Assembly (NCBI RefSeq): GCF_964019925.1
Contig: NZ_OZ026470.1
Span: 682,001 to 746,000 of the forward strand
DNA: 64,000 bases
Direction of reading: 5' to 3'
DNA from: Spiroplasma endosymbiont of Cantharis nigra
GTDB lineage: Bacteria; Bacillota_I; Bacilli_A; Mycoplasmatales; Mycoplasmataceae
Shown here piece by piece: positions 40,184 to 49,923 of the stretch (within the stretch, counting starts at the first letter, position 1; the number at the start of each line of letters is the position of its first letter). Both the position numbers and the translations under genes were made by a program. The notes below the pieces were generated by a model. That model was given only the letters and a program-made list of their open reading frames with translations, was not told the DNA's origin and searched no databases.

Positions 40184-41653
40184 TTATTTTGCCTTTTTAC
40201 CAAATTTATTAGATTTATGAGTTTTTTTATTTTTTATAGGTAGATTTTGTTTTTTAGAAAATCATTTACCTAAATATTTTAATTGTAGTTTATCTCAAAA
40301 TATTAAAACTAGACTAAATAAAATATTGATATATAAAGTTAAACAACCAGAGTAATAATTTGATATTATTTTTCAATTATTCTCATTTTGAAAACCATAT
40401 ACAATAAAAATAGACGTTAAAAATGTATTAAAAGGTAATAAAAACATTATTGAGTTTTTTAAATTTATACTTATTAAATGCTTATATAATAATTCCGGTT
40501 CGAAACCTTTTGTTACATTTAAAAAAGGAGCTAAATTAATTCTATTTTCAGACAAATAAAACGCTTCTAAAAATGAACTCTTTAGAATAAAGAATTTAAT
40601 AGCATAGCTATTATTTTTTTTAAACTTATTAATATTAGTATCAATATCTTTTAAAACCTTAAAATTAATATTATAGATTTTTCATTCTGTATACGCATAA
40701 TTAATAGAAGATATAAGCATTCCTCCAGTAATAGCATGCAATAAGATAATAATTAATAGTTCAAAGTTAGAAGAGAAATCCATATTAAGACTAGTAAATA
40801 AAAAGTCAAAATTATTATAATCTGTAGAATTTGAGAAATCTTTTAGACTTAAAGTAGTTATCACATTACCAATTAAAAATATTAAAGTTGATATTTTTAG
40901 ATTAATTGAAATGATTAATAATATAATAAAAATCAATAATGGAAGTAATAAAATGACTACTTTCCATTTTTTAATATATATAACATTTGAAAAAGATGCT
41001 AGTTTTTCATGTCCTAGAAAAAAGAATAGTAAAATAGAAATTACTAATATAGGTAATATTATTTTTAATAAAATTACCATTATTGTTGAGTTTAACTCTT
41101 CAATTCTATGTCTTTGTTCATTTAAATTATTTAAAACACCATAGATTATTTCAATTAAACATATTGAAGATACTAATGAACCATAAATCATTCATTTTGA
41201 AGATATGTTTAAAAACTGAATCGGATAAATAAATATTAAAGGTATTAATACCAATCTAGCAAATTTATTTGGAAGAAATAACCCTATTGTAAAAGAAGCA
41301 ATAAAACAAAAGCCAACAATAAATGATGGATGAACTACACTAAAAATAATATTTCAAAATGAATATATAGTATAGTTACTAATCATTAAATATGCTGAGA
41401 ATATCAGTAAAGTAATTTCTATTACATAATAATTCCTGATTTCATTTAAGCTATTCTTGGAAATGTTAATATACTTTAAAATACTACCTAAAATTAATAA
41501 CATTATAAATAAAATTATTAAAGGAATATTAATATTATTAATAATATTCCCTAAAAATATTAAGGAAAATATTCAAATAGTACTAATTAAAATTATTATA
41601 GATGACCTTATTACTTTTTGATTATCATATTTATTTTTTTTAATAGTTTTCAT
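40184..41653 (-). CDS. Polytopic membrane protein of the surface-protein locus
   Basis: A 489-aa protein with about 10-11 hydrophobic segments covering nearly its whole length, for example IRSSIIILISTIWIFSLIFL near the start, and a Lys-rich cytosolic tail (KKNKKTHKSNKFGKKAK). Most Trp are UGA. ATG immediately follows the stop of the 694-aa gene (TAG-ATG), so it is the last member of a coupled unit: lipoprotein, 917 aa, 694 aa, this protein. No transporter family is recognised; a secretion, assembly or anchoring role for its partners is inference. Confidence 0.8.
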
Positions 41654-43738
41654 CTATTGAAGAATTTCTTCTACAATTTTCTTAAGTTCATAATCATTTC
41701 TAAAAGTATAAACTTTACTATTACCATCTTTATCAATATTTGTGTACATATATATATTAATTAACTCATTTGAATATTGTGTAGAGTGTGAAATACCTTC
41801 CATAACAGCTTCAAGAGCTTTTAGATAACTATAAAAGTAAATTTTTCCTCCAACAGAATTTATTGAGCTTATACCATAAATTGTATAAACACCATCTTGA
41901 ACAATTTCACTATATGACCTTGGTTGACCATTTCATGAGTCTATTTCTTTTTTATTAATAAATTTACTTGTTAAATTTACTTTTTTTCTCATTGCTTTTA
42001 TTGCTTCATCACCTGATTCTGCAGAAGATTCAAAGTTTCCAAAAACATCATATGCAAAATATCTATTTAAAAGAATTGCTGATTCATACTCAAACATTTT
42101 TCTTCTTGCTTCTGCCTCTGTTGCTGATAAAACTAGTCCATCTTGTGAAGAGATATCTTGTTGATCAATATGTGTATACATTAATCTAACATCCATATCT
42201 CCATATAGGAAAGTATAGTTTTCCACTTGCTCTTTTGTAGCTCAAAAATCATCTCTAATTTTATAAACTATTTCATTATTTTCTATTCTAGTTTCACCAT
42301 TTAAGATATCATGTTTATTCTTTTGATGATAATTATATTGGCTTTCATAAAATGAATATTTTTCTCCTTGTTGACCATTTACGTCATATAAATAGTCTTT
42401 TGCTACATTGTACTTATTCATTGGTCTATTAACATCGCTAATATTAGTTTCATTATTTATTTCTTCTGGTATGTCTTTAAATAATTTTTTTATTTTAAAA
42501 TCATTATATCAAATTTTATATAAATCATTCACTTCCTGCGTTGATAAATCCTGATAATTTGAAACAATTCTAGTTAATTTAATGTCTGAAAGTAGGTTTT
42601 TATTATTAAAATCTGCAAATAGTTTCACGTTTGTTTGTCCAAGTTCTTCAACTGATTGAAGACTAAAATTTACATTTGCGGGATTCTTTTTTTTACCTTT
42701 CTTTGTTGGATAATATTCTATTTTTGAGAATTTTTTATTTACTTTCTTATCAATACCTGGCTTTTCAAAATAATAATGATATCTTTTACCTTTATTTTTT
42801 TCATTTACTTCTCTTCAATTGTTTTTATTTATTAAAATTTCTCTAGTGATTGATGAATCATCAAACTTAATATTTTGTCCTTCAGATGAAGTAATAGATT
42901 CACTTCCATCATTATAATGAATTTTAAAATCAATTCCTTTTGTTGTAGTAAATCTAAATCACTTTTCAACATCAAGATTGATAAAGTTTTCATAATTTAA
43001 ATCATTTTCATCTAAAGAGTTTTTTGATTTTGTTCAAGGAGTTCTTAAAGTTGCTTCAATTGTATCTTGTATTGTTTTTTTAGTTCCATATAAAACATTT
43101 TGTCCTGTAATTTCACTTGCAGAAACTCTATAGCCTTCTTTTAAAATATTTTTTAAAGCACTTTCATCTTCCTTATTAAATACATTATAATAGCGTCCAT
43201 TTATATAGTAGTATAAAGATTTATGTAATCCACCTTGATAAACATAATCATTTTTGGCCTCTTCTGGAGAATCGAATCAATTTAAGTTATCATAGCTATA
43301 CTTATGGGTAACAGAGCCTCCATTTACGTAAGTACTTAAAGCTGCTTCCTTATTTATAGAAACATTACCAAAAGCATCTCTATAAATTCTTTGAAAATTT
43401 TCTTGTTCTAAATCATAAATTTTTGTTTCATCTAGTATTCCATTTCCGGCATCTTTAATAATTTTATTTGGATTAGAACTAGTTTGAAATTCTTTAATAT
43501 TTTCCATTTCAGTTAAGTATAAATAAAGTTCATCTTCGCTATAAAAATCTAATCCATCAATAGATCATTTTTCAATTTGATCAACAGGTTTTGCATTATC
43601 TTTAATACTATTATAAAGATTTTCAAATTCAATAGAATTTTCTATTGAATTTAAAGTGGTACTATAGCCAACCGCTGTTAAAGGAGTTGCAACCATATTT
43701 AAGCTTGAGAAAGCTAATACTGCTTTTAAACCAATCAT
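41654..43738 (-). CDS. Large surface protein with repeated beta-hairpin/helix-like modules (694 aa)
   Basis: Begins with a hydrophobic segment (IGLKAVLAFSSLNMVATPLTAVGY) without a lipobox Cys, so it is a signal anchor or cleaved signal. The remaining 660 residues are hydrophilic and contain many degenerate units of about 25-35 residues: an aromatic-rich strand, D/N-G or similar, Phe/Tyr, then a Ser/Thr-led helix with Glu-Ala and aromatic residues (WSIDGLDFYSEDELYLYL, YRDAFGNVSINKEAALSTYV, WFDSPEEAKNDYV, YDVFGNFESSAESGDEAIKAM). Start: ATG at 43736-43738 with AGGTG 6 nt upstream; GTG at 43747 is the alternative. It follows the 917-aa gene directly. Function unknown. Confidence 0.78.
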
Positions 43739-43747
43739 TTTAATCAC

Positions 43748-46504: not shown

Positions 46505-47365
46505 TTATTTTTTATACAAACGAGTATTTATTTCTTTTTCTAAAAAAATACTTTTATTGTCTTTCAATGAGATTACTAAGTTTAAACTATATAAATCATA
46601 ATACTTATCATTTTCATCTAATAAATTAAAATTTACAACATTAATATTTACTAAATTTAATATCGATATTTTTTGATCATTCTCATCTTTTTTTATACTT
46701 ATTTCAAGTTCTTTTGTAAGTTCATCAAGTTTATCTTGTTTTTCTTTAAGTTGATTTAATTTATCAGTAGTTACTTTTATATTCAAACTCTGAAATATAT
46801 CTACTTCCTTAAATCATGATGTACTCATTCCTTTGTTATTTTTATAGAAATTTTTATTTATAGTTGAATTAAAAAAATTGTCTAAATATTTTTCATTTTC
46901 ATATTTTTGTGTTTGAGTGAAATTGAATTTAAAATTTAGTCAGTCATTTTTTGCCTCATTAAATTCGTTATTACTTCTATATGTAAAAGATATGTCAAAC
47001 GTATATTTAACATTATTTTTTATTTCATTAATTTCTTGATTTAATGTTTCTGCTGTTGCATGAATAAAAGAATAATCTTTATAGTTAAATTTCTCATTAA
47101 TTAAATCATAAAACTGTTCCAAAGCTAAATGTCCTAAAATTGAACTTGTCCCCATTATTCCATCATTTATTTTATATCCTTCTTCAAATATAAATGGCCC
47201 TTCATAATTAATTTCACCAATTTCATTGACAAATTCTTTCAATAATTCATCTGTTAAATCTTTTTTAATCACAGGATCTGGTCCTGGGTTATTACATGCT
47301 ATAACACTAAAAGATGAAGATGCAACTAAAGTTACAGTTCCTAAAATTGTTAATAATTTTCTCAT
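46505..47365 (-). CDS. Lipoprotein, tandem family copy 1
   Basis: A 286-aa lipoprotein. Signal MRKLLTILGTVTLV with lipobox SVIAC, then CNNPGPDPVIKKDLTDELL. The mature chain contains the conserved EGPFIFEEGY and LGHLALEQFYDLINE blocks, and the C-terminal third is a coiled coil ending LFLEKEINTRL-like. It is the copy directly upstream of the intact 917-aa gene. ATG at 47363-47365 follows two AAAGGAAA tracts; a TATAAT-type promoter lies about 20-35 nt further up. Copies 2 and 3 are closely similar in the first 60 residues and diverge more toward the end. Confidence 0.9.
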
Positions 47366-47452
47366 TGTTTTCCTTTTCCTTTTCAAAAATATTATATTAT
47401 ATAAATTTAAATAATTTAAATTTGTTTTTTATTTTTTCCTTTAATTTAAAAA
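47366..47452 (-). promoter_or_regulatory. Leader and promoter region of lipoprotein copy 1
   Basis: An AT-rich stretch with overlapping TATAAT/TAATAT hexamers at roughly 47390-47402 and a purine-rich ribosome site. The same leader sequence precedes copies 2 and 3, so all three should be transcribed from the same kind of promoter. Confidence 0.5.
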
Positions 47453-47473
47453 ACCAGTAGTTTTACTACTGGT
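47453..47473 (-). terminator. Terminator between duplicated units (copy 2 side)
   Basis: Perfect 9-bp stem ACCAGTAGT / ACTACTGGT, 3-nt loop, T-run on the minus strand. The same hairpin, with the loop bases inverted, recurs at 48869-48889. Confidence 0.85.
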
Positions 47474-47796
47474 AAACTTGGGTTACATTTTTCTATATAT
47501 TTATAATATATATTATCCAAAAAAATAAATCCTTTTTATGTTTTTATATGCTAAATAAGTGTTTTTCTAGTAAAGTATTACTCCTAAATGAAGTCATAAT
47601 TTTGATTAAGGAACTTAATACTTATTATAAATTTAAATTATTTTTACTAAATACTTTAAAAATTAATATTTTTTTCATTTATATATAAATTAATATTTTT
47701 TTACAAAATTCTATTAATATAATTATCTAATCTAAAAATAATTTTTAGCATCAATATAGTTTTCATTTTTAAAAAATATTTTATATTAATTTTTTT
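47474..47796. other. AT-rich non-coding stretch downstream of the pseudogene fragment
   Basis: About 320 bp without a supported ORF, lying where the body of a 917-aa-type gene would be. I see no clear similarity to the intact gene; it may be eroded coding sequence. Confidence 0.45.
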
Positions 47797-47924
47797 ATCA
47801 TAGAAGACATAATTAGAAAAATTATTATTATACTTAAAGCATCCATAAATTATATTGATATTACTAAAAATGATGCGGCAATTAATGATAATATAGTTTT
47901 TTTACTCTTAAATACTTTTTTCAC
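47797..47924 (-). pseudogene. Decayed 5' fragment of a 917-aa-type gene (after lipoprotein copy 2)
   Basis: Starting at GTG 47922-47924 the translation reads VKKVFKSKKTILSLIAASF, LVISI, then stop; shifting frame continues KYNNNFSNYVFYDKK. This matches residues 1-45 of the intact 917-aa protein (MKKIFKSKKTILSLIAGSSL… SYNNNFSHYVFDGK). A stop and a frame change disable it, and nothing recognisable follows beyond about 47797. Confidence 0.85.
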
Positions 47925-47925
47925 T

Positions 47926-48789
47926 TTATATTACTTTTTTCAATAATGTATTTATTTCTTTTTCTAAATAAATGTCCTTATTGTCTTTCATTGAAATTCT
48001 TAAATTTAAACTATATAAATCACGACTTTCATTATATTCATCTAATAAATTAACATCTACAACATTAATATCTACTAAATTTAATATTGACTTTTCTTGT
48101 GTTTTTTTATACCTTTTAATATTATCTTCAATCTCTTTTTTAATCTTGTCAAGTTTTAATTGTTGGTCAACAATCTCATTTAATTCGCTAGTAGTTACTT
48201 TCATAGATAGAATATTAAATATATTTGTTTTTTCAAAACGAGTAGTTGTCATACCTTTATTATTTTTATAGAGTTCTTGATTAATTATTGAATTAAATCA
48301 TACATCCAAATATTGTTTATTATTATACTGCTCTGTTTGAGTAAAATTAAACTTAAATGTAATTCCTCCATTTTTAAATTCATTAAATTCATTATTACTT
48401 CTAAATCTAAAAAATGCTTCAAAGCTATATTTAACATTATTACTGATTTCAGTCATTTCTTGACTTATTATTGTGGTTGAACCATGAATAAAAGAATAAC
48501 CTTTATAGTTAAAATTCTCATTAATTAAAACATAAAACTGTTCCAAAGCTAAATGTCCTATAATTGATTCCGTACCAATTATTTCATCATTTATTTGATA
48601 TCCTTCTTCAAATATAAATGGCCCTTCATAATTAATTTCACCAATTTCATTGACAAATTCTTTCAATAATTCATCTGTTAAATCTTGTTTAATCACAGGA
48701 TCTGGTCCTGGGTTATTACATGCTATAACACTAGAAGATGAATATGCAACTAAAGTTACAGCTCCTAAAATTGTTAATAATTTTCTCAT
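47926..48789 (-). CDS. Lipoprotein, tandem family copy 2
   Basis: A 287-aa paralogue of copy 1. Signal MRKLLTILGAVTLVAYSSSS, lipobox SVIAC, then CNNPGPDPVIKQDLTDELL. It shares EGPFIFEEGY, LEQFY, FKFNFTQTEQY and the C-terminal coiled coil; a UGA Trp lies at residue 164. Its mature sequence differs in short patches (GTESIIGHL, GSTTIISQEMTEI) against a conserved frame, as expected for diverging surface antigens. It is followed at once by the pseudogene fragment. Confidence 0.9.
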
Positions 48790-48868
48790 TGTTTTCCTTT
48801 TTCCTTTTCAAAAATATTATATTATATAAATTTAATAACTTAAATTTGTTTTTTATTTAATTTAAAAA

Positions 48869-48889
48869 ACCAGTAGTAAAACTACTGGT
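48869..48889 (-). terminator. Terminator between duplicated units (copy 3 side)
   Basis: Perfect 9-bp stem ACCAGTAGT / ACTACTGGT with AAA loop and T-run on the minus strand; a duplicate of the hairpin at 47453. Confidence 0.85.
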
Positions 48890-48929
48890 AAATTTAGGTT
48901 ACATTTTTCTGTTATTTTATATTAAATTT

Positions 48930-49059
48930 TTTACCATAGAGTATATAATTAGAAAAATTATTATTATACTTAAAAGTCCCATAAATTATATTGATATTAC
49001 TAAAGAAGACCAACAATTAATGACAATATAGTCTTTTTACTCTTAAATAATTTTTTCAC
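48930..49059 (-). pseudogene. Decayed 5' fragment of a 917-aa-type gene (after lipoprotein copy 3)
   Basis: GTG at 49057-49059 opens VKKLFKSKKTILSLIVG; one missing base then breaks the frame, after which SLVISI-stop and KYNNNFSNY can be read in shifted frames. It shares the ISI-stop lesion with the fragment at 47797-47924, so both relics descend from one already damaged copy. Confidence 0.85.
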
Positions 49060-49065
49060 TTTATA

Positions 49066-49923
49066 TTACTTTTTTAATAATGTATCTATTTGAGTTTTCA
49101 GAAATACATTTTGATCATCCTTCATTGAGATTAATAAATCTAGACTATATTTATTTTTATACTCATTATACTCACCAAGTAATTCAAAATCTGCTACATT
49201 AATATTTATTAAATTTAATATTGATTTCTCTCTTACTTTCTCATCAATCTTAATTGCATTTTCAAGTTCCTTTGTAAGCACATCAAGTTCCTTTTCTTTA
49301 TCATTAATTTGATTTAACTGTTCAGTAGTTAACTCAATATCCAAGTGATGAAAATTATTTATATTTTCAAGTTTAGATGTACTCATTCCTTTATTATTTT
49401 TATAGAAATCTTGATTAATTACTGAATTAAATCATACATCCAAATATTGCTTACTATTATATTGTTCTGTTTGAATGAAATTGAATTTAAACTTAATTCC
49501 TCCATTATCAAATTCATTAAATTTACCATTACTTCGATATCTAAAAAATACCTCAAACGTATATTTAACATTATTTTTTATTTCATTAATTTCTTGATTT
49601 AATGTTTTCGCTGTTCCATGAATAAAAGAATAGCCTTTATAATTAAACTTCTCATTAATTAAATCATAAAACTGTTCTAAAGCTAAATGTCCTAAAATTG
49701 AACTTGTTCCCAGTATATTATTGTTTATTTCATATCCTTCTTCAAATATAAATGGACCTTCATAATTAATTTCACCAATTTCATTGACAAATTCTTTCAA
49801 TAATTCATCTGTTAAATCTTGTTTAATCACAGGATCTGGTCCTGGATTATTACAAGCTATGACACTAAAAGATGAAGATGTAACTAAAGTTACAGCTCCC
49901 AAAATTGTTAATAATTTTCTCAT
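49066..49923 (-). CDS. Lipoprotein, tandem family copy 3
   Basis: A 285-aa paralogue. Signal MRKLLTILGAVTLVTSSSFS, lipobox SVIAC, then CNNPGPDPVIKQDLTDELL; conserved EGPFIFEEGYEIN, LGHLALEQFYDLINEKFNYKGY; C-terminal coiled coil (NQINDKEKELDVLTKELENAI). A UGA Trp lies at residue 164, as in copy 2. The same promoter/leader block is upstream (TATAAT near 49953). First unit of the array in transcription order. Confidence 0.9.

What the first reader, a model, noticed from the sequence alone, without database searches (positions are those of the whole stretch)
46505..49923. Tandem array of lipoproteins, each trailed by a relic of the same downstream gene
Three lipoprotein copies share signal peptide, leader and first 60 residues. 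After copies 2 and 3 lie 5' fragments of the 917-aa gene with disabling lesions. Both relics share the stop after ISI, so one damaged unit was duplicated again. Identical hairpin terminators separate the units. The ancestral unit was lipoprotein plus 917-aa gene; only one full operon survives.
Basis: seen in the sequence. Interest (0 to 1): 0.6.

Follow-up and report, generated by a model that had tools for sequence, protein, structure and literature searches.

The report
Recombining lipoprotein array beside surface operon
Three neighbouring surface-lipoprotein genes in a wall-less bacterium are shuffled copies of one another, and the broken gene pieces between them are left-overs of the next gene, a pattern that recurs in related species and suggests a variable part of an uncharacterised surface machine.

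Summary
Three complete lipoprotein genes (L1-L3) lie in tandem upstream of a 917-aa gene (P917); L2 and L3 are each followed by about 145 nt of P917's 5' end (blastn E about 1e-33 and 1e-31). The relics share a GTG start, a 13-nt deletion and the ISI stop bases, though L3's relic also has a 1-nt deletion that closes its frame earlier.

The history is more than duplication and decay. L1-L3 are mosaics: L1 and L2 differ at 0 of 42 synonymous sites in codons 1-66 against about 24 of 57 after codon 180. In relatives, 36 of 41 loci with P917 plus P697 have a lipoprotein beside them, and 10 of 20 arrays carry fragments of the adjoining gene. Those fragments are younger than the lipoproteins beside them and mostly diverged as parts of working genes.

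Best reading: a conserved surface operon whose lipoprotein partner is amplified and reshuffled by homologous recombination; the relics are scars. No family model covers these proteins; function is inferred. Whether a whole operon was duplicated here cannot be settled.

The parts
49066..49923 (-). Lipoprotein L3 (285 aa), first unit
   Evidence: ORF, code 4; LP_plasma signal E 9.2e-11
48917..49059 (-). Relic R3: 5' fragment of P917, GTG start, 1-nt and 13-nt deletions, stop context shared with R2
   Evidence: blastn E 2.2e-31; alignment; translation
48869..48889 (-). Hairpin with T run between units 3 and 2
47926..48789 (-). Lipoprotein L2 (287 aa)
47780..47924 (-). Relic R2: 5' fragment of P917, 24 codons to the ISI stop, 13-nt deletion
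   Evidence: blastn E 8.8e-34
47453..47473 (-). Hairpin with T run between units 2 and 1
46505..47365 (-). Lipoprotein L1 (286 aa), directly upstream of intact P917
43748..46501 (-). P917, intact; one N-terminal membrane segment (residues 14-32), short repeats
   Evidence: homologues in 16 of 60 genomes searched, own included
41654..43747 (-). P697, most conserved module gene, short repeats
   Evidence: 24 of 60 family genomes, own included
40184..41653 (-). P489, membrane protein with about 12 hydrophobic segments
   Evidence: aligned with 12 homologues from clade-A modules

Best explanation
The locus is a surface operon (lipoprotein, P917, P697, P489) whose lipoprotein partner has been amplified into a tandem array and is kept diverse by homologous recombination. 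Shown: three complete lipoprotein units; relics that are dead 5' ends of P917; a mosaic history of the three lipoproteins; the same association and the same kind of fragments in related species. Inferred: extra units arise when recombination (unequal exchange or uptake of a sister allele) adds a divergent lipoprotein allele together with the adjoining stretch of the neighbouring module gene; the fragment then decays while the lipoprotein is kept and its 5' end is homogenised. Also inferred: the lipoproteins are exposed, ligand- or host-facing parts that work with P917/P697, so that variety is selected for. The relics make no working protein.
For: Mosaic: 268 informative sites, 143 neighbouring pairs of the same pattern against 88 +/- 7.8 in shuffles, p = 0.0002; synonymous differences L1-L2 0/42 in codons 1-66 against about 24/57 after codon 180, Fisher 1.4e-7. 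In 19 of 20 module-linked arrays synonymous difference is lower in codons 1-60 than after. Fragments: in 14 of 14 comparisons less diverged at third positions than the adjoining lipoproteins, 12 with p<0.05; pooled over 13 fragments outside the window, positions 1+2 differ at 173/5168 and position 3 at 295/2584, ratio 3.4, within the range of intact against intact genes (2.6-7.4). Partnership: 36 of 41 module loci have a lipoprotein within 1.5 kb against 11 of 89 control ORFs; lipoprotein family follows the P697 clade. RecA present.
Against: The window's own relics do not show the third-position excess (R2 6/48 at position 3 against 13% at positions 1+2; R3 9/46 against 12%), and R3 and L092 are not individually significant. 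In 3 of 6 control sets of other lipoproteins the 5' synonymous rate is lower too, one only marginally, and one control trio is also mosaic, so 5' homogenisation is not unique to this locus. 10 of 20 arrays have no detectable fragment, 7 of them of one lipoprotein superfamily. No strain-level data, no expression data, no usable structure (mean pLDDT 44 and 34). Surface function rests on topology alone.
Confidence: 0.6

Rival explanations
1. Plain duplication and decay: a whole lipoprotein + P917 unit was duplicated in place, P917 died in the extra copies, and the lipoproteins diverged by mutation under relaxed or diversifying selection. The relics are only debris and there is no exchange.
For: Relics share lesions and in the window show neutral-looking changes. 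Whole modules in tandem exist in L105 and a 5'+3' remnant in L109.
Against: Zero synonymous changes in codons 1-66 beside about 24/57 further on and block-wise switching of the closest pair need exchange between copies. R2 and R3 differ at 17/149 while the lipoprotein ends in front of them have dS about 1.2.
Confidence: 0.22
2. Toxin-immunity reading: P917/P697 are exported antagonists and the lipoproteins are a stack of immunity proteins that protect against related strains.
For: Arrays of variable small genes beside a large exported protein recall such systems (recalled analogy).
Against: No toxin, defence or phage domain is found; P697 is conserved over its whole length with no swapped C-terminal domain seen in the alignment; the variable partner is the lipoprotein.
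Confidence: 0.08
3. Dosage: more lipoprotein copies simply give more of one protein, and 5' homogenisation only reflects leader and signal-peptide constraint on the DNA.
For: All three copies look expressible. Low 5' synonymous rates also occur in some control sets.
Against: Copies differ in about a third of mature residues (67 and 69% identity) and conserved blocks reach far past the signal peptide.
Confidence: 0.1

Closest known systems
MgPa operon and MgPar partial copies of Mycoplasma genitalium (PMC2169797, abstract read)
   Same: An operon for surface proteins with extra partial copies, and variation by recombination
   Different: MgPar copies lie at nine loci and feed an expression site; here the copies are tandem, the lipoprotein ORFs are complete, and the partial pieces belong to the conserved neighbour gene
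Vpma lipoprotein locus of Mycoplasma agalactiae (PMC2268961, abstract read)
   Same: A locus of several related surface lipoproteins (near-identical 5' ends there are recalled)
   Different: Vpma switching needs the adjacent recombinase Xer1; no tyrosine-recombinase domain (PF00589) is found anywhere in this genome
ScARP / sarpin adhesins of Spiroplasma citri (PMC3485318, passages read)
   Same: Repeat-bearing surface proteins of what I take to be the same bacterial group
   Different: ScARPs have 6-8 repeats of 39-42 aa and a C-terminal membrane segment; P917 has a short repeat core of about 21 aa and only an N-terminal segment
LP_plasma lipoprotein signal (NCBIfam NF038029)
   Same: All three lipoproteins match it
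   Different: It covers only the first 24 residues and says nothing about the mature protein

Membership tests
Recombinase-switched lipoprotein locus (Vpma type) | Site-specific (tyrosine) recombinase gene beside the array | tested here: not met
   PF00589 has 0 matches in the whole genome; 14 of 14 control genomes positive
Silent-cassette donor system (MgPar / vlhA type; vlhA recalled) | Partial donor copies and one expression site | tested here: inconclusive
   All three lipoprotein ORFs are complete behind the same leader, with TATAAT-like boxes upstream of L1 and L3, so they do not look like silent donors; expression itself untested
Silent-cassette donor system (MgPar / vlhA type; vlhA recalled) | Observed sequence switching within a strain | not testable with these tools
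   One genome per species held
ScARP / sarpin adhesins | Sarpin domain of 6-8 repeats of 39-42 aa (PMC3485318) | tested here: inconclusive
   Repeat core found is about 21 aa; no ScARP sequence was available to compare
ScARP / sarpin adhesins | C-terminal membrane segment | tested here: not met
   Only residues 14-32 of P917 and none of P697 pass the hydropathy cut
Mollicute lipoprotein (LP_plasma) | Signal peptide matching NF038029 | tested here: met
   E 9.2e-11, 6.5e-10, 4.9e-10, above cut-off
Known phage-defence systems | Match to a PADLOC model | tested here: not met
   0 families for 4 proteins

The most novel reading that the evidence does not exclude
In this bacterial group a conserved two- or three-protein surface machine carries an allele-stacking lipoprotein site. 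Incoming or sister lipoprotein alleles are added beside the machine by homologous recombination, the truncated pieces of P917 or P697 being the homology arms used, and the constant first 60 codons plus the arms let the variable middle be swapped: a surface-variation system without a recombinase and without silent cassettes.
Probability: 0.3. Interest if true: 0.72.

Novelty: new variant of a known kind. Interest (0 to 1): 0.48.

Why it matters
My nine searches of the paper library listed no paper on recombining lipoprotein arrays in Spiroplasma. If right, this is a surface-variation locus in insect-associated wall-less bacteria that can be tested simply by sequencing isolates. It also shows how broken gene pieces beside tandem copies can date the exchange of the genes next to them. 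P917, P697 and P489 have no Pfam or NCBIfam match, although P697 is in 24 of 60 genomes of the family searched.

Tried and rejected
Whole-operon duplication as the only route: considered, not excluded; spacer 47480-47790 gave no operon remnant above shuffles (the many weak genome hits look like A+T-rich background). Hairpin as the operon's own terminator: rejected, P489 is followed by a tRNA and a different hairpin. A similar hairpin stretch at G000:C1:305873 (91% over 54 nt) lies just after a short ORF and before a transposase-like ORF and told nothing. Solved relatives: none for P917, one chance-level hit for P697. Structures: pLDDT 44 and 34, so no fold search was run. PHROGs hit only a signal peptide.

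Rows dropped before counts; lipoprotein clusters 9, 10, 11 and 16, judged not to be module partners (9 and 10 served as controls, with cluster 15, which lies near two modules); L039's truncated fourth copy and L097's edge-cut copy. L109 (its P697 is split), one of two L098 relics, one short L105 fragment, L110's third fragment (used). One search left out the window relics and L109. The 14 comparisons come from 7 genomes and are not independent. Lipoproteins were called by a pattern in a script, not by a trained predictor.

Full report
What is there. The window is part of a 1,237,520-base single-contig genome read with genetic code 4. On the minus strand a run of genes starts with three lipoprotein genes, L3 (49066-49923), L2 (47926-48789) and L1 (46505-47365), followed by P917 (43748-46501), P697 (41654-43747) and P489 (40184-41653), and ends before a tRNA-Arg. 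L2 and L3 are followed, a few bases after their stops, by 5' fragments of P917: blastn E 8.8e-34 and 2.2e-31. The fragments share a GTG start, a 13-nt deletion and the stop bases after ISI. R2 reads 24 codons to that stop. R3 has a 1-nt deletion and closes after 19 codons. Two hairpins with the same 9-bp stem but different loops lie before units 2 and 1.

History of the three lipoproteins. They have no single tree. Across 1072 aligned columns of the units, sites that pair 1 with 2, 1 with 3 and 2 with 3 come in blocks: 143 same-type neighbours against 88 +/- 7.8 in 5000 shuffles, p = 0.0002. L1 and L2 differ at none of 42 synonymous sites in codons 1-66 but at about 24 of 57 after codon 180; L2 and L3 have dS about 0.13 in codons 1-66 and about 1.2 after codon 180, while the relics directly behind them differ at only 17 of 149 positions. 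Young flanks around an old part are what recombination between copies or alleles leaves; protein constraint alone would not remove synonymous changes.

The same thing in relatives. P917 homologues were found in 16 of 60 genomes, own included. P697 homologues were found in 24 of 60 genomes of the family, own included, and in 25 of 320 genomes of the order, the only one from outside the family being weak. I read 45 loci: the window and 44 stretches of 20 kb. Of 41 with both P917 and P697, 36 have a lipoprotein gene within 1.5 kb, against 11 of 89 control ORFs away from the module (Fisher 4e-17). The lipoproteins belong to several families: profile comparison joins LIP1 with LIP5, and LIP2 with LIP3 and LIP3 with LIP14, but not LIP6, LIP7, LIP8 or LIP12 with these. 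The family beside each module follows the P697 tree (some deep forks open, three long branches).

Fragments in arrays. Nineteen of the 41 loci have two or more copies, and L040, with P917 only, makes 20 arrays. In 10 of 20 a piece of the adjoining module gene abuts an array lipoprotein: 5' pieces of P917 where the lipoprotein lies upstream of or divergent from P917 (window, L040, L041, L090, L092, L098), 3' pieces of P697 where it lies downstream (L105, L108, L109, L110). No such fragment was found in L039, L042, L045-L050, L097 and L100. In L105 three of the four main spacer fragments start at the same place in P697 and in L110 two of three do, so lipoprotein + fragment was copied as a piece. 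In L109 a P917 5' piece sits directly before a P697 3' piece, the footprint of a whole module with its middle lost. L105 also has two whole P697 genes in tandem.

Age test. In 14 of 14 comparisons (7 genomes, not independent) the fragment is less diverged from its intact gene at third positions than the two adjoining lipoproteins are from each other beyond codon 60; 12 have p<0.05, R3 and L092 do not. Over 13 fragments outside the window, positions 1+2 differ at 173/5168 and position 3 at 295/2584, ratio 3.4; eight intact-intact comparisons give 2.6-7.4. Drift since duplication should give about 1.5 (my estimate from those rates, not a call). So most of these fragments diverged while part of a working gene, in another lineage or in a full copy, and were cut recently. 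The window relics and L098 do not show this (ratios about 0.9, 1.6 and 1.5) and look older.

Is the 5' homogenisation special? In 19 of 20 module-linked arrays synonymous difference is lower in codons 1-60 than after; L041 is the exception. Of six other lipoprotein sets 3 are lower too, one of them marginally (19/20 against 3/6, p 0.03). Nine of ten module arrays with enough sites have at least one mosaic triple at p<0.01, but so does one control trio. The effect is stronger here but not unique.

How it may work. P917 has one N-terminal membrane segment, P697 none above the cut, P489 about twelve; short repeats (consensus YYDFFGNYFLSKEEALNYYTN) occur in P917 and P697. With lipidated partners this fits a surface complex (inference). 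No Pfam, NCBIfam, PHROGs, PADLOC or PDB relative informs function. A tyrosine recombinase is absent and RecA is present, which points to homologous recombination. Both structure predictions were too poor to use.

Known or new. Variable lipoprotein loci and partial operon copies are known in mycoplasmas (abstracts of PMC2169797 and PMC2268961). In S. citri, expression of lipoprotein and ScARP genes and the ScARP3d repeat domain have been studied (passages of PMC4804543 and PMC3485318). The passages I saw of PMC9666726 and PMC6007557 do not mention this locus. My nine paper searches listed no description of it; most subscription papers are not held. I therefore call it a new variant of a known kind, with function unproven.

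Noticed in passing
L045 (G000:C1:558667-563473) with L046: The same genome has a second P917/P697 module of another clade with a downstream array of 163-aa lipoproteins; a near-identical module with an array of eight such copies lies in genome G009.
   Followed up: partly
L104 (G000:C1:869974-870614): A third, degraded P697 3' end with several stops, without a lipoprotein array beside it.
   Followed up: no
L105: Two P917/P697 modules in tandem, each followed by LIP6 lipoproteins with P697 3' fragments between them.
   Followed up: partly
L109 10857-12081: Between two LIP8 lipoproteins a P917 5' piece sits directly before a P697 3' piece, as if a whole module had lost its middle.
   Followed up: partly
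L122 and L123 (G000:C1:246000-257999, 303000-320999): Series of 611-619 aa lipoproteins, some followed by permease-like and ABC-ATPase-like genes, with transposase-like fragments between.
   Followed up: no
contig lengths: Lengths 1,107,344, 1,123,322 and 1,365,714 agree, from memory only, with S. syrphidicola, S. chrysopicola and S. eriocheiris; no tool named the genomes.
   Followed up: no
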